64,000 bases of DNA from Sorex araneus (taxonomy: Eukaryota > Chordata > Mammalia > Eulipotyphla > Soricidae). The position numbers were made by a program, and so were the translations under genes. The stretch spans positions 79,956,599 to 80,020,598 of the forward strand of contig NC_073306.1 in assembly GCF_027595985.1 (NCBI RefSeq). The letters are read 5' to 3'. Under the pieces are notes generated by a model. The model ran no database searches, was not told the origin of the DNA, and saw nothing but the letters and a program-made list of their open reading frames with translations. Shown in pieces: positions 34,287 to 57,015 of this stretch; positions within the stretch are counted from its first letter, which is position 1; each line of letters opens with the position of its first letter.

Positions 34287-34534
34287 TAGCACTGTAGCAC
34301 TGTCATCCTGTTTTTCATCATTTGCCCAAGCAAGCACCAGTAACGTCTCCTTGTGAGACTTGCTACTGTTTTTGGCATATCGAATACGCCAAGGGTAGCT
34401 TGCTAGGCTCTGCCGTGTGAGGGCGGGATAGTCTCGGTAGTTTGCCAGGCTCTCCTAGAGGGACGGAGGAATCGAACCTGGGTTGGCCACATGCAAGGCA
34501 AATGCCCTATCCGCTGTGCTATCGCTCCAGTCCA
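34287..34534 (-). mobile_element. RTE-tailed SINE, head-to-head with the RTE copy
   Basis: tRNA head at the right end (tgctatcgctccag) and RTE-like tail at the left (caccagtaacgtctcc, tagcactgtcatcc). It abuts the truncated end of the RTE element in opposite orientation. Confidence 0.85.
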
Positions 34535-34540
34535 CAGTTA

Positions 34541-35560
34541 CTACAAGGAACTACACCATTCTACAAGGAAGTGATCATTAATGTAAAGAGAAGGGTGCAG
34601 CAGGGTGATACCATTTCACCGAAACTCTTCAGTGCCACCCTCGAGAACATCATGCAACGACTGGAATGGGAAGGAATGGGAGTGAAGATAGACAGTCGGC
34701 AATTACACCACCTTCGCTTTGCTGATGACATCGTTCTAATAACACCAAACATTAGCCAATCGGCACAAATGCTGGCCGACTTCGACCATGAGTGTGGATT
34801 GCAGCTGAATCTCAACAAGACCATGCTCATGAAAAATAAACTAGTCCCTGAAGCTCCATTTGCTCTCAATGGAACGAACATCTCTGAATGCAGCAGCTAT
34901 GTGTACCTGGGTCGAGAAATCAACATGAGGAACGACTTGGTGCCAGAACTGCGCAGGAGGAAGAGAGCAGCATGGAATGCCTTCAAGAGTGTCAAAGAAG
35001 TGGTTAAGAGAACGAAGAACCTCCGACTCCAGGCACATCTTTTCGATTCCACCATTCTTCCTGCACTAACATATGCCTCAGAGACCTGGGCCCTATGCAA
35101 ACAGTATGAGAACAACGCTATTAGGGTATGTCAAAGAGGAATCGAAAGAGCTATAGTAGGAGTATCACGTCTTACTCAAGTGAGAAAAGGAATCTGGAGT
35201 TCTGACCTCCATCGATGGTCAAGAATCAGGGACGCTGTCTCATTTGCCAAGGCATCAAAAATCATGTAATGTGATTCAGAGACGACCACTGGACTAGAAC
35301 TGTTACCGACTGGATTCCACAGGACTTCAGAAGACCTCGTGGCCGCCCACCGACTAGATGGTCAGATTTCTTCGTCAAATCCCTGAATGAACAATTTGAG
35401 GTGCTTCCTTTTCCTGGAGCAAACAGACATCATTGGGTTGCACTAGCATGCAACAGGGACAAATGGAGATGTTACTGGCGCCCGCTCGAGCAAATCGAAG
35501 ATCAAGGGAGTACAAGTGATACAAGTGATACAAAATGTAGTTTGTGTATTCTGAATGGTT
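34541..35560 (+). mobile_element. RTE/BovB-type LINE, 5'-truncated, with RT remnant
   Basis: Encodes the C-terminal half of an RTE-clade reverse transcriptase: RRVQQGDTISPKLFS, then FADDIVL (catalytic FADD), then YVYLG and the thumb region, up to a stop at 35267. After a small deletion/frameshift near 35255-35280 another frame continues with RPRGRPPTRWSDFF and RDKWRCYWRPLEQIEDQ. The 3' end is short repeats of atacaagtg, as in RTE elements. No endonuclease domain remains, so it is dead. The apparent ORF starting at 34442 is an artefact that fuses antisense SINE to this RT. Confidence 0.88.
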
Positions 35561-36012: not shown

Positions 36013-36940
36013 AAAAATTTATTTATTTTTTAATTAGTGAGTCACAGTGAGGGTACAGTTACAGATTTATACATTTTCATGCTCATGTTTCCTTCATACA
36101 AATTTCAAGAACCTATCCCTTCACCAGTGCCCATTCTCCACCACAAATAAACCCAGCATCCCTCCCCCCCCCATCCTATCTCCCCCTACCCTACCCTGCC
36201 ACTGTGGCAGGGTATTCCCTTTTGTTCTCTCTCTCTAATTAGGTGTTGTGGTTTGCAATAAAGGTGTTGAGTGGTCATTGTGTTCAGTCTCTAGTCTACA
36301 TTCAGCACGTATCACCCTTCCCCCGCATGGCCTCCAACCACATTTTACTTGGTGTTCACTTCTCTATCTGTGTTGCCCTCTCCCCAGAATGTGAGGCCAG
36401 CTTCCAAGCCATAAAGTCAACCTCCTGGTACTTATTTCTACTATTCTTGGGTGTTAGTCTCCTACTCTGTTATTCTATATTCCACAGATGAGTGCAATCT
36501 TTCTATGTCTGTCTCTCTCTTTCTGACTCATTTCACTTAGCATGATACTTTCCATGTTGATCCACTTATATGTAAAGTTCATGACCTCATTTTTTCTAAC
36601 AGCTGCATAGTATTCCATTGTATATATGTACCAAAGTTTCTTCAACCAGTCATCTGTTCTAGGGCACTCGGGTTTTTTCCAGATTCTGGCTATTGTAAAC
36701 AGTGCTGCAATGAACATATAAGTGCAGATGTCATTTCGACTATACTTTTTTGCTTCCCTGGGATATATTCCCAGAAGTGGTACTGCTGGGTCAAATGGGA
36801 GCTCAATTTCTAATTTTTTGAGAATAGTTCATATTGTTTTCCAAAAGGGCTGAACCAGTCGGCATTCCCACTAGCAGTGTAGAAGGGTCCCTTTCTCCCT
36901 ACATCCTCTCCAACAGCGGTTGCTTTTATTCTTTTGGATG
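36013..36940 (-). mobile_element. L1 3' end (ORF2 C-terminus plus 3' UTR), 5'-truncated
   Basis: Flanked by a 17-bp duplication, tcatcacctgtattttt (35996-36012 and 36941-36957). The minus strand encodes the ORF2p end (CPRTDDWLKKLWYIYTMEYY), then a purine-rich 3' UTR. It is the uninterrupted counterpart of the L1 that holds the provirus. Confidence 0.92.
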
Positions 36941-49567: not shown

Positions 49568-50050
49568 TTTTTAATTTTTAAATTTATTTATTTTTAATTA
49601 GAGAATCACCGTGAGGGTACAGTTACAGATTTATACACTTTTGTGCTTATACTTCCCTCATACAAAGTTCGGGAACCCATCCCTTCACCAGTGCCCATTC
49701 TCCACCACCCGTAAACCCAGTGTCCCTCCCACCCTCCCCAATCCCATCTCCCCCCCACCCCACCCTGCCACTGTGGCAAGGCATTCCCTTCTGTTCTCTC
49801 TCTCTAATTAGCTGTTGTGGTTTGCAATAAAGGTGTTGAGTGGCCGCTGTGCTCAGTCTCTAGCCCTCATTCAGCCCGCAACTCCCTTCCCCCACATGGC
49901 CTTCGACTACAATGTAGTTGGTGATCGCTTCTCTGAGTTGACCTTTCCCCGGAACGTGAGGCCAGCCTCGAAGCCATGGAGTCAACCTCCTGGTACTTAT
50001 TTCTACAGTTCTTGGGTGATAGTCTCCCACTCTGTTATTCTATATACCAT
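49568..50050 (-). mobile_element. L1 3' UTR and tail, left part of the interrupted L1
   Basis: 3' UTR with pyrimidine-rich plus strand (gagagagaacaaaag-type purine tract on the L1 sense strand) ending in a T run at 49561-49572. Same family as 36013-36940 and 44109-44350. Continues at 57016 after the provirus. Confidence 0.9.
50045..50050. repeat. Provirus target-site duplication, left copy
   Basis: The hexamer taccat directly precedes the TG that opens the 3' LTR on the plus strand; it matches 57010-57015 exactly. Confidence 0.95.
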
Positions 50051-50128
50051 TGTTCGTGGCCCGCGTCGCGATTTCCCTTCGCCAGCAAAGAGTGAGACGA
50101 CACGGGTTGAGGATCCTTCTGCAGCAGT

Positions 50129-50134
50129 TTTATT
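50129..50134 (-). terminator. Polyadenylation signal in the 3' LTR
   Basis: AATAAA on the minus strand, 60 bases downstream of the TATA box at 50189-50194. This places the R/U5 boundary shortly after it. Confidence 0.8.
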
Positions 50135-50230
50135 CAGTCGACTTCACGAGGAGAAAGAAAGAACCCCAACCCGGGTAATGGCAGTCCTTATATAGCCTGG
50201 TTGCCCCGCCTCTAAGGTGGTGCTCATTTT

Positions 50231-50380
50231 CTATTGGCTCTCGCTCATAGGGTGGCGCCTTTCCTATTGGCTCTTGCTCATAGGGTGGCGCCTTTCCTAT
50301 TGGCTCTTGCTCATAGGGTGGCGCCTTTCCTATTGGCTCTCGCTCATAGGGTGGCGCCTTTTCTATTGGCTCTTGCCACG
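50231..50380 (-). repeat. 33-bp CCAAT-box tandem array in the 3' LTR
   Basis: Four full units of ctattggctcttgctcatag... (33 bp each) and a fifth partial one. On the element's sense strand each has an agccaata core, the NF-Y/CCAAT-box motif. The array behaves like a retroviral enhancer repeat. Confidence 0.9.
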
Positions 50381-50468
50381 CATGCGCAATGCGGTCGTTG
50401 CGCATGCGCAATGCGGTTGTTGCGCATGCGCGATCATGCGCATGCGCAATGTGCTCTGGCTCCCTACA

Positions 50469-50478
50469 TCTCCCCCTT
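50469..50478 (-). promoter_or_regulatory. Polypurine tract
   Basis: Minus strand aagggggaga directly abutting the 3' LTR, the expected plus-strand DNA primer site. Confidence 0.9.
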
Positions 50479-51076
50479 ATGTCTTTGTTTATGGAGCCAT
50501 CCTGTTGGTAGAAGGGGGTGGCGGTCACCACTGCCTGTATTACAAGGGACTGAGGAGGCCTCCGCACGTCCCCTTCAGGTCGCGCCAAGGCTCCACCTGT
50601 CCCGCCGTCCTCACTTCCAGGCAGGGCAAAATCCGACGGCGGCCCTATGCAAGTGGCTCGCCACCCTGAGTCGGGGGCCAACTCAGTGCAGTGCTCTCTG
50701 GCCTGACACCCTTCTCAGGAAGAATACTCGGGAGCACCCGTACTCGTGCAATGAGCCCTTGTGGCTCCGAGCGTGCAAGGGCTGCTCCCAGAGCAGGAGC
50801 CATGAGCGCAAGATCTCAGGAAAAATACTCGGGAGCACCCATACTCGTGCAATGAGCCCTTGTGGCTCCGAGCGTGCAAGGGCTGCTCCCAGAGCAGGAG
50901 CCATGAGCGCAAGATAGAGGGGGATAGCGGGAGCCTAACGAGTCCGAGCCCCCGCCAAAGAATTGGGGCACCAGGCAGCAGTCAGCTATTACCCAGGTAA
51001 AAGCGAATAATCAAAACAACAATCAAAAAATACAACCATCAAAACAAAATCAGAAATGCAATCAACCAACATAGCA
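50479..51076 (-). other. Proviral region between env remnant and polypurine tract
   Basis: AT-rich sequence (about 50960-51076) followed by GC-rich sequence, with no recognisable env. It contains two adjacent copies of a 101-bp unit. An open frame runs on into the 3' LTR but has no ATG before the LTR, so it is not called as a gene. Confidence 0.8.
50717..50917. repeat. Tandem duplication of a 101-bp unit
   Basis: Units at about 50717-50817 and 50818-50917, period 101 bp, differing at only a few positions. Each contains atactcgggagcaccc and ctgctcccagagcaggagcc, the latter an inverted repeat that can form a hairpin. Confidence 0.92.
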
Positions 51077-51469
51077 TCAAGCGGTTTCCACGTAGGACAT
51101 ATGGGGCTTTGCAGTAAAATACCTCTTTCCTCCTAGGGTACATTCAGAATAGCTGGTATAACACATGGCATTCATCTGGTCCACCACTTGACAGTTTTGA
51201 GGACAGGGATCCCCCTTATTTATAAAAGTAGGCTTGGGCACGCACTGCCAAAACTGGGTCAGTCCGCCTCGAGCACTGGGCTGCGTGACGAGATATATAG
51301 TCAGAGTCCCACAGTCCACGGTTTTCGTGTAGCTCGTTGGGGTCACCGAAGATTGTCCTCCCTGACAGTTGCTTGGGGTCCCATACAGCTGTTGTAGAAG
51401 GCGTGTAAGGTCAGCCGGTCGGCCCAATCCGGCCTCCGTCGGTTGCACAGTCAGCAGCAGGATCATCAT
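51077..51469 (-). pseudogene. env: Truncated env: N-terminal surface-subunit fragment (130 aa)
   Basis: Opens with ATG and a short hydrophobic start (MMILLLTV), then a cysteine-rich region with seven Cys, including PCPQNC. Order and spacing recall the receptor-binding part of type-D/gamma-like retroviral surface subunits; that assignment is tentative. No furin site, fusion peptide, transmembrane segment or cytoplasmic tail is encoded before the stop or in the following 600 bases. It cannot act as an entry protein. It could be dead sequence, or a short secreted product if the upstream splice acceptor is used. Confidence 0.6.
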
Positions 51470-51511
51470 TGCAAACCCGCAGGGTCGGCACCGGACGACG
51501 AGCCGCGTTCT

Positions 51512-51530
51512 CTGTAAGAAGAAAAGAGAG
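51512..51530 (-). promoter_or_regulatory. Splice acceptor for env mRNA
   Basis: The minus strand reads ctctcttttcttcttacag, a textbook pyrimidine tract and AG, just after the pol stop and about 45 bases before the env AUG. It suggests a spliced subgenomic RNA could still be made. Confidence 0.7.
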
Positions 51531-51538
51531 AATCCCTC

Positions 51539-54136
51539 TCAGGGGTTCCCCCTGGAGCATTCTGTGGACTCGGTGTCAACCGCCTCCTCAGTCAGGGTAG
51601 CCTGTTTCAGGGTCCGCGTCAATCTTTCAGGGACCCAGAAAGGCTGCTCGGCTTCTTGTGGAAAGACGCACACTGCGCCTCTCGATTTGATCAGGGCAGG
51701 GTCAGGACCCTTCCAGGTATTATCAATAGTGTCCTTCCACTTAACCAGCAGAGGTGGAGTGCGGGGAGGGGCCACATGGCGGTCTGCGGCCGAATTGCCT
51801 GAGTCATCCAAAATCAGATAATTGAGCACAAAAAGAGTAAGTGCAAGAGCACTTCTGGGGGACCTTATGTCCTCCCATCCCCCTCTCAGCTTTTGTAAGT
51901 AAGACTTCAGGGTCCTATGTGCTCGTTCAACCATGGCTTGGCCCTGTGGGTTATAAGGAATTCCCGTAACGTGGGTTACCTGCATCTGAGCACAGAATAG
52001 CAGGAATTTTTTGGAGGAATAAGCCGGCCCATTATCAGTCTTCAAGACCTGAGGCTTGCCCCAGGCGCTCCAGGCCTCCAGGCAGTGCTGGATAACATGA
52101 GTGGCCTTCTCCCCACCCAGGGGTGTGGCCATAAGAACGCCTGAGCAGGTGTCAACAGAAACATGCACAAACTGAGTCTTACCCAAGCTGGGGACATGGG
52201 TGACATCCATCTGCCAGAGGTGGAGGGGTCGCAGGCCCCGCGGGTTAACCCCAACAGCCCGTGCAGGGAAATACTGGACACAGTCTTTACACCCAGTCAC
52301 GATGTCCCGAGCCTGTTGGCGAGTAATCTGGAACCTGTGCTTCAGAGTTCCAGCTGTAACATGAAACTTCTCATGGAAGTCTTTCGCCTGTTGGATCGGC
52401 TCAGCTAGTAAGGCCAGTGGGCGCGTAGCCTCGTCTACAAGAGCGTTGCCCAACGCCATAGGGCCGGGTAGGTGACTGTGAGCGCGAATGTGCGTCACAA
52501 AAATTGGGTTGCAGCGCTGCAAAAGGCTGCGCTGGATTTCCTGAAAAATCTGGGACACGGGGCCTCTGCCCCTTATAACGCCAGCAGTCTCAAGGACTTG
52601 AAGGGCATTTACCACATAGATGGAGTCAGACACCAGATTCAAAGGCTCCGGAAAGCGTTTTAGGACTTCTGCTACAATCTTGCACTCGACCACCTGTGGT
52701 GAGCGCGGGCCGTAGTTCCTACGAACCACCTGTCCTTTGGCCAAGTACGCCCCAATGCCTGTTTTGGAGCCATCAGTGTAGACAGTGGTGGCCCCAGGGA
52801 CAGGGCGCTTTACTGTAACTTTGGGGAAAATCAAAGGATGTAAGGTAGCAAAGCGGGCCAGGGGATGTTGGGGGAAATGATTATCAATGTCCCCATTGAA
52901 GAGCACGGACAATATGGCCCAAGAGTCATGTTCAGCCGCCAGAACCTGACGCTGTTGCAGAGTATAGGGAATAATTAACTTGGCCGGGTGGAGCCCAAAA
53001 TGTTCCAAAGAGCGCTGAAGTCCCTTTAGAGCCAGATCAGCCACAGCAACAGGGTAGGAAACAATACTTTTTGCAGGGGATGCATGTGGATGGATCCAAA
53101 GAAGGGGGCCATCCTGCCACAGAGCAGCTGTGGGAGTGCCTCGAGTAGGGAAAATACATAATTGCCAGGGATGATGATAGTCTATCCTGGACAGCTGGGC
53201 TTTACTAATCGCTTGCTCAATTTTCTGTAGTGCCACCCGCCCCTCGGGCGTTAGTTCCCTGGGGGAGTCCAGGGCGGGGTCCCCCTCCAATATTTTAAAT
53301 AGAGGGGCCATATCCCCAGAAGGGACCCCCAAGGAGGGGCGCAGCCAGTTAATGTCCCCTAATAGCTTCTGAAAATCATTGAGTGTGCGCAGATCTCGCA
53401 CCTGTAACTGAATCCTTTGAGGCATGATGTACTTTGGGTAGATAGTGGTTCCCAGAAAGGAGCCAGTATCAGAAAATTGCACCTTCTCCGGGGCCAATTG
53501 TAAGTTCCATTCGTCAAAGGCATCTCTGAGGACCTTGAAGGCCTCCTGCAGGGTATCCTTATTATGAAATGCTAACAAAATATCATCCATATAATGTATG
53601 ATATAAAGTTGAGGGAATTGCTTTCTAAGTGGTCGCAGGGCTCGCTGGACATATAGCTGGCATATAGTGGGGCTATTAGCCATGCCCTGGGGTAAAACTC
53701 TCCATTGATATCGAGAGTCGGGACCCTTATGATTAAGTTCAGGAACAGTAAATGAAAAGCGGGGGCGATCTGCAGGGTGCAAAGGGATGGAGAAAAAGCA
53801 ATCCTTAATATCAATAATATAGAGATACCAATTAGTGGGCAAGGCGGAAAGCAAGGGGAGGCCCCGCTGTACAGGGCCTAAGAGTTCCATTTGGGCATTA
53901 ATTGCGCGAAGATCGTGCAAAAGTCTCCAGGTGCCTGATCGTTTTTTAATGACAAAAACTGGGGTATTCCACGGGGAAGTGGAGGGCTCAACGCATCCTT
54001 TTTTCACTTGTTCTGCCACAATAGTTGTTAATGCTTGGAGCTTATCTAGGGGCAGGGGCCACTGAGGCACCCAGACCGGGGATCTCGTGGTCCAGGGAAT
54101 GGGTAGCTCCGCCCCAGTGGCCCTGATCAAAAACCC
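51539..54136 (-). CDS. pol: Pol: reverse transcriptase, RNase H, integrase
   Basis: About 865 residues after the pro-pol slip site, with no stop codon. RT shows LPQGMANSP and the catalytic YMDD (53582-53593) plus the earlier Asp in [10 protein letters not shown]. RNase H has YTDGS (Asp near 52777), a following Glu, VSDS and the last Asp in [10 protein letters not shown]. Integrase shows an HHCC zinc finger (HEKFH then CKDC), then Asp near 52207, Asp in [10 protein letters not shown] and Glu near 51928, with 35 residues between the last two (DD35E). The C-terminal DNA-binding part ([13 protein letters not shown]...) is also present. All catalytic residues I looked for are intact. Its product would copy and integrate the genomic RNA. 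Confidence 0.95.
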
Positions 54137-55005
54137 AGCCCCGTTTTGCCTTGATTTCCCTCCGCAGTGATAGGCTCTGTGATGCCACTGGAATTCTTTC
54201 CTAGTCCTTCTCCTGGTATGTACCCCATGCCTTGCATTATTTTGCGTGCCTGAGGGGAGTACTGATTGGTCAAGACTATGCCTAAGGCTGTTAAGACATC
54301 CCTGCCCCAAAGGTTAACTGGGAGAGGCAGGACATACGGGGTGAAGGAACCCTTGCTCCCTTCATCAGTACGCCAGGTGAGGACCTGGGTGCTCATGGAA
54401 GGGCATTGGGTATAACCTAGACCCTGAAGCTCATGCTCAGACTCAGCCACCGGCCAGCCCTTAGGCCACCAGTGCGAGGAGATGATACTCCGGTCAGCGC
54501 CGGTGTCCATAATGCCCTCAAAACGCTTACCCTGAATGGAAAGGGTCAGTTTAGGTCTCTTGGTCAGGTTCATGACTAGGTAAGCTTGCACCGGGTTCGT
54601 GGCGGGGATTTCCAAGGGGCCTCTCCGTTTAGGGTCCTCAAAACCAGCCGGGAAGAGGAGCGCCTGCGCGACACGGTCCCCTTCCTTAATTACAAAGGTG
54701 CCTGTCGGGCAGGAGCATAAAACCTGAATGCTCGGTTTTCTGACATCTAGTGTACCTGGGTAAACTATAAGACCCAGCTTCGCGAGGGTTGTCCTTCCCA
54801 CTAAAAGGCCAATGCATCCAGGAGGGGCTTCTTGCACGGGTGCCACCGGAACAGGCTGGACTCCTGAATCAGGGGTTATGGTGAGGGAGGAGGTGGCACG
54901 GAGGTCCAGTTGGGTGACTCTATACTGGGTTGCTGTTCCTGAGCCTCCCGAAAGAACCTGGTCCCATACTTGTTCAGGCCCTGAGACCGTGGGCCTCGCC
55001 TCCCG
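54127..55005 (-). CDS. pro: Pro: dUTPase-like domain, aspartic protease and G-patch
   Basis: Expressed by -1 slippage from gag; its own ORF starts only with GTG, so no independent start is proposed. The N-terminal third resembles betaretroviral dUTPase: a [13 protein letters not shown] segment and [12 protein letters not shown] are visible. The region where the nucleoside-binding tyrosine motif should lie reads [15 protein letters not shown] and lacks the usual D-Y pair, so catalysis is doubtful. The protease has DTGA (Asp codon at 54505-54507) and a GRDVL helix motif. The C-terminus is a glycine-rich G-patch ([12 protein letters not shown]), as in Mason-Pfizer-type viruses. The protease cuts Gag and Pol; the G-patch is known to bind nucleic acid and aid reverse transcription. 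Confidence 0.9.
54130..54136 (-). promoter_or_regulatory. pro-pol -1 frameshift heptamer (main candidate)
   Basis: G GGT TTT in the pro frame, immediately before the pro stop TGA. An alternative in-frame heptamer, G GGA AAT, lies at 54154-54160. Either -1 slip enters the pol frame, which is open from before this point. The sequence alone does not decide between them. Confidence 0.65.
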
Positions 55006-56576
55006 TTTTTTGGCTCCTCCGAGATTAGTGGTGGGAGGAGCCGCCCCATATTGTCACGGACGGACCGACAACGGTCGGCGGGGTGATTGCCCTTCTTGCA
55101 GCGCTGACACAGAGAGGGGTTCGCCCGAGGCGCCCTGCAGTCACGCTTAACGTGTCCTCGTTTCCCACAATTAAAACAGGTGCGGTCCCAGGAGGGATCC
55201 GAGCCTCGCTGCCGCTGTGAGCAGAGAATGGCGGCCGCTAGGCCAGCGTTGGAGAGGGGGCCCCCGAGCTCGCGGCAGACTTTGAGCCAATCCTGCAAGC
55301 CCTTAGCCCTCCTCGGGGCTATGGCATTCCTGCATTCCTGAGTTGCTTGTTCAAAAATGAGCTGCTCGATAAGGGGGGTCGCTGCGTCCGAGTCGCCAAA
55401 AATGCGACTCGCCACCTCCGTCATGCGTGCAACAAAATCAGAGAAGGGTTCCTGAGGCCCCTGAATGACCTTTGTAAGTTGGTTACTTGCCTCACCTTTT
55501 GCGGAAAGGCCTTTCCAGGCTTTTATGGCAAGCAAGGATATCTGGGGATATACCCCCCAGGGTAAGTTAATCTGATCCTCTGCATGGACGCCCTGGCCAG
55601 TAAGCATATCACTGGTCCACTCGTGCTGCGCGGCATCGCGGGCGTTACGGTTAAGGCGAGCCTGATCCTGAGCTACATCATACCAGAGGGCCTTCCACTC
55701 TAAAAATTTCCCGTTATTGGGTAGCGTGGCTTTGGCCACGTCCTGCCAATCCCTGGGGGTCATTCGATCCCGTGCTAGCCTGTCAAGCAGGGAAATGGTG
55801 TAGTTGGCATTTGTTCCGTACTTCCTGACCGCCTCCGCTAGCTCCTTAATCTGAGCAAACTCCACGTGGGCGTAAACGCGCTCGTCCCCATCCCCCTCAA
55901 AGACGGGGAAAGCTAATCGCATCTGCCTGCACAGATTATCAGGAAACAGGGAAGTACGAGATGGACGTGCATGATAGGGTGGAGGGGGAGGAGCGGAAGG
56001 CGAGGGGCGTGTCGAGCCCCTCACACCGCGAGCCCGAGACTTCAGAGGATGGTACCTAGTTGCTTCATAACGGGCCGCTTTTTGCTGTAATAAATCCTCC
56101 TCTTCGGAACTAAGGGAGGAATCCTCCGAGGGGCTATGTCTAGGTCTATGTCTAAGGTCTAAGCTGATTGCAGCCACGTCACGCTTGGGGTACAAGTCCC
56201 CGGCCTCGTCCGAGGCGGATCGAGGGTCATTTGTTTCCCTTTTCTCTTCTAGTTTCTTGCCCCCACCGGGCAGTCCTTTTTCCTTATTTATTTCTAACTT
56301 CTTGCCCCCACCGGGCAGTCCTTTTTCCTTATTGCTGGGTATTTTCATACGCGCGCCCAGCCCTCCTGATTGCTCGGTTTCTGACAAACTGTCTTGGACC
56401 CTTTCCAACACCTGCCGGCCTTCCCTGACCACTATGGAGCATGCCTCATTCTCCAAACAATTTTGAACCATCTTCCAAATCGCCTCAGTGCCCATAGTAA
56501 AGACACAGGAGCAAAAGAGAAGGCAAATCCAAATAAGGAGGACAAAGAGCGCTCCCCACCACCAGGAAACAGGCAT
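54876..56576 (-). CDS. gag: Gag polyprotein with hydrophobic N-terminal leader
   Basis: Structural polyprotein, 566 residues from the first AUG after the primer site. Residues about 5-26 are strongly hydrophobic (WWWGALFVLLIWICLL), like an ER signal or anchor. A second in-frame Met at 56495 (residue 28, MGTEAIW) has a strong Kozak context and a myristoylatable Gly, and would give a conventional 539-residue Gag. Then come a duplicated 15-residue basic segment (82-110), an acidic/serine-rich stretch, a PPPY late-domain motif (198-201), capsid with major homology region (about 373-392, QGPQEPFSDFVAR) and two CCHC zinc knuckles (467-480, 490-503). An extension back to 56765 is open but begins with GTG inside the LTR, so I did not use it. 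Both AUGs are plausible; which is used decides between ER and plasma-membrane targeting. Confidence 0.93.
   Translation of the reverse strand: MPVSWWWGALFVLLIWICLLFCSCVFTMGTEAIWKMVQNCLENEACSIVVREGRQVLERVQDSLSETEQSGGLGARMKIPSNKEKGLPGGGKKLEINKEKGLPGGGKKLEEKRETNDPRSASDEAGDLYPKRDVAAISLDLRHRPRHSPSEDSSLSSEEEDLLQQKAARYEATRYHPLKSRARGVRGSTRPSPSAPPPPPYHARPSRTSLFPDNLCRQMRLAFPVFEGDGDERVYAHVEFAQIKELAEAVRKYGTNANYTISLLDRLARDRMTPRDWQDVAKATLPNNGKFLEWKALWYDVAQDQARLNRNARDAAQHEWTSDMLTGQGVHAEDQINLPWGVYPQISLLAIKAWKGLSAKGEASNQLTKVIQGPQEPFSDFVARMTEVASRIFGDSDAATPLIEQLIFEQATQECRNAIAPRRAKGLQDWLKVCRELGGPLSNAGLAAAILCSQRQRGSDPSWDRTCFNCGKRGHVKRDCRAPRANPSLCQRCKKGNHPADRCRSVRDNMGRLLPPLISEEPKNGRRGPRSQGLNKYGTRFFREAQEQQPSIESPNWTSVPPPPSP
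55005..55011 (-). promoter_or_regulatory. gag-pro -1 frameshift heptamer
   Basis: Minus-strand A AAA AAC in register with the gag frame (codons CCA AAA AAC). A -1 slip leads into a frame that stays open through pro, about 130 bases before the gag stop. A downstream pseudoknot is expected but was not folded here. Confidence 0.88.
56254..56340 (-). repeat. In-frame 45-bp tandem duplication in gag
   Basis: Copies begin at 56254 and 56299 (period 45 bp = 15 codons) and encode two runs of NKEKGLPGGGKKLE. The copies are nearly identical, so the duplication is recent. It lies in the matrix-side linker, which tolerates length change in many retroviruses. Confidence 0.9.
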
Positions 56577-56693
56577 TCTTTTCTTACCAACGCTGGGCAG
56601 TGGTCCGCAGCACGCCTCTCCGAGCAATCGTCCTGCAGTTCTGAATCCTCCCTCCAAAAGGAGGGGTTCTTCCTCGCGGTGCAAGATGAAATT

Positions 56694-56710
56694 CCCGGGT
56701 TTCGGCACCA
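56694..56710 (-). promoter_or_regulatory. Primer binding site for tRNA-Phe
   Basis: The plus strand reads cccgggtttcggcacca, the 3' end of mammalian tRNA-Phe including CCA, so the proviral strand is its exact complement. Two bases separate it from the LTR. Phe primers are characteristic of IAP elements; most betaretroviruses use tRNA-Lys. Confidence 0.92.
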
Positions 56711-56850
56711 GTTGTTCGTGGCCCGCGTCGCGATTTCCCTTCGCCAGCAAAGAGTGAGACGACACGGGTTGAGGATCCTTCTGCAGCAGTTTTATTCAGT
56801 CGACTTCACGAGGAGAAAGAAAGAACCCCAACCCGGGTAATGGCAGTCCT

Positions 56851-56856
56851 TATATA
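56851..56856 (-). promoter_or_regulatory. TATA box of the proviral promoter
   Basis: On the minus strand the sequence reads ctatataagg, with upstream CCAAT boxes and NRF1-type palindromes. Transcription would start about 25-30 bases downstream, near 56825, giving a leader of about 250 bases before the first gag AUG. Confidence 0.85.
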
Positions 56857-56961
56857 GCCTGGTTGCCCCGCCTCTAAGGTGGTGCTCATTTTCTATTGGC
56901 TCTCGCTCATAGGGTGGCGCCTTTCCTATTGGCTCTTGCCACGCATGCGCAATGCGGTTGT

Positions 56962-56989
56962 TGCGCATGCGCGATCATGCGCATGCGCA
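56962..56989. promoter_or_regulatory. Paired NRF1-type palindromes in U3 of the 5' LTR
   Basis: tgcgcatgcgcg (56962-56973) and tgcgcatgcgca (56978-56989) fit the NRF1 consensus YGCGCAYGCGCR exactly. The 3' LTR has three exact sites (50399-50410, 50421-50432, 50437-50448) and a near match at 50377-50388. NRF1 binding is known to be blocked by CpG methylation, so expression could depend on the methylation state of this CpG-rich U3. Confidence 0.7.
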
Positions 56990-57009
56990 ATGTGCTCTGG
57001 CTCCCTACA

Positions 57010-57015
57010 TACCAT
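57010..57015. repeat. Provirus target-site duplication, right copy
   Basis: The hexamer taccat directly follows the CA that closes the 5' LTR. The interrupted L1 sequence resumes at once (atagatgagtgcaatc), matching the uninterrupted L1 copy near 36485. Confidence 0.95.

What the first reader, a model, noticed from the sequence alone, without database searches (positions are those of the whole stretch)
50045..57015. Very young, coding-intact class II provirus with identical LTRs
Apart from tandem-unit number I see no substitution between the two LTRs, the 6-bp target duplication is perfect, and gag, pro and pol are all open. An integration this recent could be polymorphic in the population and still mobile. 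Seen: LTR identity and open frames. Known: LTRs are identical at integration. Inferred: recent or ongoing activity.
Basis: partly seen in the sequence, partly recalled or inferred. Interest (0 to 1): 0.9.

Follow-up and report, generated by a model that had tools for sequence, protein, structure and literature searches.

The report
Young IAP-type endogenous retrovirus in shrew
This is a recently inserted virus-like jumping element in what is most likely a shrew genome, related to the IAP elements of mice; it has lost most of its envelope gene and carries a membrane-anchor-like leader on its core protein, which suggests it jumps inside cells instead of spreading between them.

Summary
A class II provirus lies on the minus strand at 50045-57015. 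It has a perfect 6-bp target duplication, and its LTRs differ only by 99+22 nt of repeat units, with no substitution over the 297 bases of the shorter one. Gag, pro and pol are open, with in-phase slippery sites. A related repeat copy elsewhere in the window runs through the equivalent empty site. Two corrections: the LTRs differ in length (418 and 297 bp), and env is only an N-terminal fragment. Such short LTRs bound the age only to about 1-2 My. Polymorphism and mobility could not be tested; the host assembly did not complete.

It is an IAP-type element, most likely of a Sorex shrew: its nearest Gag and Env relatives are Sorex araneus proteins (91% and 96%). Its Gag lacks the betaretroviral matrix (Gag_p10) and starts with a 27-residue hydrophobic leader; another Sorex Gag keeps the matrix. 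The leader is not detectably similar to the mouse IAP leader, and one clade for both is rejected. The best reading is a recent, env-deleted, intracellularised retrotransposon that arose in parallel with mouse IAP. Shrew IAPs with gamma-type env are already published.

The parts
50045..50050 (+). target-site duplication TACCAT, left copy
   Evidence: identical to 57010-57015
50051..50468 (-). 3' LTR (418 bp): U3 with 3 exact GCGCATGCGC sites and 5 CCAAT boxes in a 33-bp array, TATATAA, AATAAA
50469..50478 (-). polypurine tract AAGGGGGAGA
   Evidence: sequence; role recalled
50713..50915 (-). two tandem 101-bp repeats between env remnant and PPT; each folds into a similar hairpin, not clearly better than shuffles (z -1.7); no Rfam match
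51077..51538 (-). env remnant: N-terminal part of a gamma/type-D-like SU (TLV_coat), truncated
   Evidence: Pfam E 1.9e-9 from the first ATG; 96% over 92% to Sorex araneus P0245
51512..51513 (-). likely env splice acceptor (pyrimidine tract then AG)
   Evidence: sequence; inferred
51539..54313 (-). pol: RT (YMDD), thumb, RNase H, integrase, open
54127..55053 (-). pro: dUTPase, aspartyl protease, G-patch, open
54876..56576 (-). gag, 566 aa from ATG: p24 N and C domains, two zinc knuckles; no Gag_p10 matrix match
56496..56576 (-). 27-residue hydrophobic leader at Gag N-terminus (Kyte-Doolittle 2.74 over 19 residues)
55005..55011 (-). AAAAAAC slippery heptamer, gag/pro, in phase
54130..54136 (-). 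GGGTTTT slippery heptamer, pro/pol, in phase (GGGAAAT at 54154-54160 is the alternative)
56586..56587 (-). likely major splice donor (GGTAAGA) just before gag
   Evidence: sequence; inferred
56693..56710 (-). primer binding site TGGTGCCGAAACCCGGGA, complementary to the 3' end of tRNA-Phe
   Evidence: sequence; tRNA assignment recalled
56713..57009 (-). 5' LTR (297 bp): 2 exact GCGCATGCGC sites, 2 CCAAT boxes, TATATAA, AATAAA
57010..57015 (+). target-site duplication TACCAT, right copy

Best explanation
A recently integrated IAP-type (class II) LTR retrotransposon, most likely of a Sorex shrew. It descends from a betaretrovirus-like ancestor that had taken up a gamma-type env. In this copy env is cut down to the start of SU, and in its subfamily the matrix part of Gag was replaced by an N-terminal hydrophobic leader. 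Proposed life cycle: methylation-sensitive U3 sites (NRF1-like palindromes plus CCAAT boxes) allow transcription in hypomethylated germ-line or embryonic cells; RNA is primed by tRNA-Phe; two -1 frameshifts give Gag, Gag-Pro and Gag-Pro-Pol; the leader inserts Gag in the ER membrane, so particles bud into ER cisternae, stay in the cell and re-insert. Shown: anatomy, open frames, TSD, LTR comparison, absence of a matrix match, truncated env, kinship. Inferred: ER targeting, factor binding, germ-line expression, current mobility.
For: Anatomy, TSD and LTR comparison. Domains and frames. Among the 120 listed of 518 Pol hits, the best-scoring named records are an IAP Pol-related polyprotein (P0038, 58%; mouse by recall), a Nannospalax protein (56%) and Chinese hamster IAP CHIAP34 (62%). 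In the Pol tree the window's protein groups beside a set holding P0038 and CHIAP34 (no outside group). Sorex araneus Gag P0125 is 91% identical and has the same 27-residue leader; Sorex P0126 keeps Gag_p10. One clade of shrew and mouse-type leader Gags is rejected on the capsid-nucleocapsid tree (p-AU 8.7e-76). The leader's hydropathy is reached by 4 of 669 stop-free ATG 27-mers in the window, the leader itself being one of the four. Precedent: a changed Gag N-terminus and env loss made mouse IAP from IAPE (PMC2791754 passages; PMC3236903 whole text). CREB1, whose binding is blocked by motif methylation, drives mouse IAP LTRs (PMC9729108 passages).
Against: No expression, particle or insertion-polymorphism data. 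The leader could be bypassed by starting at Gag Met28, which has a good start context. Another Sorex copy carries at least 200 aa of a very similar env (P0245), so help in trans from an enveloped relative is possible. The leader label is scattered on the Gag tree hardly less than by chance (LEAD against the rest needs 9 changes, shuffled mean 10.6, 70 of 500 shuffles as low), which fits frequent change but would also fit unreliable predicted N-termini. The Pol tree has no outgroup. The host is inferred, not stated.
Confidence: 0.75

Rival explanations
1. Old or fixed insertion that only looks young: LTRs are short, or were made alike by gene conversion.
For: 297 bp without change still allows about 1-2 My. 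Two length changes separate the LTRs, so the arrays have slipped or recombined at some step. CpG observed/expected in pro-pol is 0.47, and 0.39 in the 471 bp of repeat just left of the provirus, so the contrast with the surroundings is smaller there.
Against: Gag, pro and pol are open, and CpG observed/expected in the whole provirus (0.62) is well above the wider flanks (0.24, 0.25).
Confidence: 0.15
2. An infectious retrovirus whose germ-line copies move by re-infection, with Env supplied by other copies; the env loss here is a private defect.
For: Sorex araneus protein P0245, 200 aa, is 96% identical to this env fragment and longer; a shrew IAP with gamma-type env is on record (PMC3758190 passages).
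Against: The Gag of this copy and of Sorex P0125 has no Gag_p10 match and begins with a hydrophobic leader, as in the mouse-type IAP Gags and unlike the matrix-bearing Sorex P0126.
Confidence: 0.12
3. The leader is not used: Gag starts at internal Met28 (MGTEAIWK) and is a soluble or acylated short Gag.
For: Met28 has A at -3 and G at +4; the upstream ATG has A at -3 and C at +4 (read). Sorex P0125 has MGTEATW, which fits the recalled N-myristoylation pattern.
Against: The window's own MGTEAI does not fit that recalled pattern. In matrix-bearing relatives the same segment is internal. The leader is identical in 27 of 27 residues between the window and P0125, though 27 residues at this divergence could match by chance.
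Confidence: 0.1
4. Assembly artefact: collapsed or chimeric LTRs, or a provirus placed wrongly.
For: The LTRs differ by 121 bp inside tandem arrays, where assemblies can err.
Against: Perfect TSD, and flanks that are continuous with a repeat copy across the site.
Confidence: 0.05

Closest known systems
Mouse IAP retrotransposon
   Same: Class II gag-pro-pol, 58% Pol identity to IAP record P0038, hydrophobic Gag leader in place of matrix, env lost; 6-bp TSD and tRNA-Phe primer (recalled for mouse)
   Different: No detectable leader similarity and no shared clade on the Gag tree; the leader joins Gag further upstream (by eye); env remnant is gamma-type; the LTRs hold GCGCATGCGC and CCAAT arrays and no TGACGTCA, the recalled CRE consensus; CRE is what drives mouse IAPLTR1/1a
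Mouse IAPE
   Same: Same lineage; progenitor type with env
   Different: IAPE has a beta-type env (PMC3758190 passages) and buds at the cell membrane; its matrix is recalled. Here no Gag_p10 match and only a gamma-type env remnant
Shrew IAP with gamma-type env (Magiorkinis et al. 2012, as cited in PMC3758190)
   Same: Shrew, IAP lineage, gamma-type env; probably the parent family
   Different: Env here is cut to the start of SU; the original paper is not held, so its Gag was not compared
Chinese hamster IAP CHIAP34
   Same: 62% Pol identity over 80%
   Different: Different host lineage; its leader was not examined

Membership tests
Class II (betaretrovirus-like) ERV | Beta-type pol (YMDD, G-patch and dUTPase in pro), p24 Gag | tested here: met
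IAP lineage | Pol and Gag nearest to known IAPs | tested here: met
   the trees have no outside group, so nesting inside IAP is not rooted
IAP lineage | tRNA-Phe primer binding site | tested here: met
   18-nt PBS read; tRNA assignment and its use by IAP recalled
IAP lineage | 6-bp target duplication | tested here: met
   length for IAP recalled
IAP (intracellular form) | Matrix replaced by hydrophobic N-terminal leader | tested here: met
   sequence only: no Gag_p10 at E up to 0.1, leader KD 2.74
IAP (intracellular form) | Particles bud into ER cisternae | not testable with these tools
   needs microscopy
IAP (intracellular form) | No functional env | tested here: met
   only N-terminal SU fragment; nine downstream frame pieces without Pfam match
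IAPE / infectious retrovirus | Matrix-bearing Gag and complete env | tested here: not met
Shrew IAP with gamma-type env | Gamma-type env | tested here: met
   TLV_coat match of the remnant; no TM left to test
Insertionally polymorphic / active element | Empty alleles or new insertions in the population | not testable with these tools
   The genome search unanswered in 15 tries

The most novel reading that the evidence does not exclude
In the IAP lineage the change between infectious matrix-type Gag and ER-leader Gag has happened over and over, in shrews independently of mice, and leaders may also pass between subfamilies by recombination. The shrew genome would hold both states, making this young provirus a natural replicate of intracellularisation.
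Probability: 0.5. Interest if true: 0.65.

Novelty: new variant of a known kind. Interest (0 to 1): 0.5.

Why it matters
The mouse IAPE-to-IAP change is the textbook case of a virus becoming a strictly intracellular genomic parasite. An independent, young case in shrews, with a different Gag leader and a different env, makes it testable whether a leader plus env loss is the general route to high copy number. If the insertion is polymorphic, it also marks a shrew family whose activity and silencing can be studied in wild animals.

Tried and rejected
Host assembly copies and empty sites: the genome search 'own' was tried with the same request 15 times and did not complete. Viral contigs: pol and env scans found no relatives; the tool warns that records of the window's own or a near genome may be left out. 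Env remnant and P0245 against solved structures: none. Rfam on 50440-51100: none at E up to 5. Folds of the 101-bp repeats and of the region next to them are only slightly better than shuffles (z -1.7 and -1.9; 12 and 6 of 200 shuffles fold as well), so an RNA export element is not claimed. NCBIfam gave only matches below its cut-offs. The key papers Ribet 2008 and Magiorkinis 2012 are not held; they are known here only through passages of PMC2791754, PMC3758190 and PMC4643047 and the whole text of PMC3236903. A search for a Sorex SINE paper listed one anatomy paper only, so the host could not be confirmed from the tRNA-Ala-like SINEs. The idea that MGTEAIWK is the old acylated start was set low, because matrix-bearing relatives have this segment internally.

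Full report
OBSERVATION. The provirus lies on the minus strand between two copies of TACCAT (50045-50050 and 57010-57015). The LTRs run TG...CA, 50051-50468 (3' LTR, 418 bp) and 56713-57009 (5' LTR, 297 bp). Removing 99 and 22 nt from the longer gives the shorter exactly, in 270 placements; no single 121-nt gap does so. There is thus no substitution in 297 bases, but at least two changes of array length. Such changes could occur during reverse transcription, after integration, or as assembly errors (inference). As a control for the insertion itself, the joined flanks align through the site to a repeat copy at about 36337-36635 of the same window, with one copy of the hexamer position. I call this repeat L1-like by recall; an RT fragment (RVT_1) lies upstream of it at 34421-35269.

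CODING STATE. Gag is open from the ATG at 56576 (566 aa), with p24 domains and two zinc knuckles. Pro holds dUTPase, aspartyl protease and G-patch; pol holds RT, thumb, RNase H and integrase. The overlaps contain in-phase -1 slippery heptamers, AAAAAAC for gag/pro and GGGAAAT or GGGTTTT for pro/pol. Env is not intact: one 153-codon stop-to-stop frame (130 aa from its first ATG) matches positions 2-138 of 560 of TLV_coat, and nine minus-strand frame pieces between it and the LTR (two of them running into the LTR) have no Pfam match at E up to 1. Its Sorex araneus relatives P0245 (96%) and P0246 (57%) are 200 aa long and continue beyond the point where the window copy ends; as predicted they start with ATG where the window copy has none.

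AGE. With no change in 297 bases, the 95% upper bound is 2.3 My at 2.2e-9 and 1.1 My at 4.5e-9 per site per year; if CpGs mutate ten times faster the bounds fall to about 1.0 and 0.5 My (all rates recalled or assumed). CpG observed/expected is 0.62 in the provirus (0.97 and 0.93 in the 5' and 3' LTRs, 0.72 in gag, 0.47 in pro-pol, 0.58 after env) against 0.24 and 0.25 in the wider flanks and 0.39 in the 471 bp of repeat just to the left. This fits a short stay in a methylated genome but also depends on the element's own composition. Polymorphism was not testable.

HOST AND KIN. The nearest Gag is Sorex araneus P0125 (91%; 95% over the capsid-nucleocapsid columns), followed by two more Sorex proteins at 77% and 75%. 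The two env relatives found (2 of 22 candidates at E up to 1) are both Sorex araneus. The host is therefore most likely a Sorex shrew; the window's origin was not given. In Pol, the two nearest proteins (78% and 68%) come from unnamed sources; the best-scoring named ones are an IAP Pol record (P0038, 58%; mouse by recall), Nannospalax (56%) and hamster CHIAP34 (62%) (120 of 518 hits listed). A quick tree of 24 of the listed proteins (23 hits and the window's own), with no outside group, puts the window's protein with those two nearest (SH-aLRT 100) and this group beside a set holding P0038 and CHIAP34 (98). PMC3758190 (passages) reports, citing Magiorkinis 2012, that an IAP acquired a gamma-type env and colonised the shrew genome; this provirus very likely belongs to that family.

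GAG LEADER. The window's Gag and P0125 have no Gag_p10 matrix match, whereas Sorex P0126 does (9.8e-17). In its place stand 27 residues with hydropathy 2.74 over 19 positions; 4 of 669 stop-free ATG 27-mers of the window reach that, the leader itself being one. Among the listed Gag hits (120 of 220) several others also have a hydrophobic start instead of a matrix. I chose 47 of the 121 rows (P0001 plus 120), most of the rest being mouse-type near-copies; two lacked the cutting motif (P0153, leader; P0156, matrix), leaving 45: 17 matrix, 12 leader, 16 unclear. The labels are my reading of predicted N-termini: three matrix rows are truncated, and in P0152, P0202 and P0225 the leader begins at an internal Met. 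On the tree of the capsid-nucleocapsid part the leader/matrix label needs at least 7 changes, with the unclear rows not counted; the same number is needed in a 29-row tree without the unclear rows. Counted against all other rows, the leader label needs 9 changes; shuffled labels need 10.6 on average and 70 of 500 shuffles are as low, so the label is hardly clustered at all: frequent change, or in part unreliable N-termini. Holding all 12 leader rows together is rejected (p 5.8e-5), as is holding shrew and mouse-type leaders together (p 8.7e-76), and holding the shrew rows with P0129 and P0132 (p 5.1e-52). These groups were named after seeing a first tree, so the p-values are optimistic. Against fully separate origins: the shrew leader resembles those of P0129 (p 0.012) and P0132 (0 of 500 shuffles), which lie in the same 8-row clade, so within that clade the leader may be shared or passed by recombination. 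It also reached p 0.036 with P0142, not notable among 36 comparisons. The pair with the mouse-type leader did not reach 0.05.

MECHANISM. In mouse, changes in the Gag N-terminus redirected particles to the ER and env degenerated (PMC2791754 passages; PMC3236903 whole text). The shrew element shows the same two kinds of sequence change with a different leader. The U3 holds exact GCGCATGCGC sites (2 and 3) and CCAAT boxes (2 and 5) in its arrays; the 10-mer occurs nowhere else in the window, and 7 of 20,000 base shuffles of the shorter LTR contain even one. NRF1 and NF-Y are the recalled binders. PMC9729108 (passages) calls NRF1 methylation-sensitive and shows CREB1 driving mouse IAP LTRs when unmethylated; a similar logic with other sites is my inference. 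Neither LTR here holds TGACGTCA.

VERDICT. A real, recent, env-deleted IAP-type retrotransposon, most likely of a shrew. A young class II ERV is not new in itself, and the family is on record. I saw no report of a parallel Gag leader swap in shrews in the listings or in the passages read, but that library lacks the two key papers.

Noticed in passing
P0245 and P0246 (Sorex araneus proteins): The two env relatives agree in 52 of 106 residues in the first half and 84 of 94 in the second (ungapped), which looks like recombination within SU.
   Followed up: partly
P0149 (unnamed source): A Gag whose first eight residues look like the matrix start, joined directly to the segment after the matrix: an internal matrix deletion that keeps the possible acylation site.
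   Followed up: no
P0111 (record named Trypanosoma congolense IL3000): A Pol protein grouped with P0038 and a Mus spicilegus protein in the tree: probably host DNA contamination of a parasite assembly.
   Followed up: partly
window 9161-60441, eight places: ARAGORN tRNA-Ala and 1 tRNA-Glu; the seven tRNA-Ala places, as read, sit in similar short SINE-like repeats and the tRNA-Glu place in a different repeat-like stretch; only one passes the Rfam tRNA threshold.
   Followed up: partly
window 34421-35269 (+): Reverse transcriptase ORF fragment (RVT_1, E 4.8e-10), upstream of the repeat copy that matches the provirus flanks.
   Followed up: no
window 56234-56323: In-frame 45-bp tandem repeat in gag (NKEKGLPGGGKKLE twice); Sorex P0125 also has two copies but with different spacing.
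   Followed up: no
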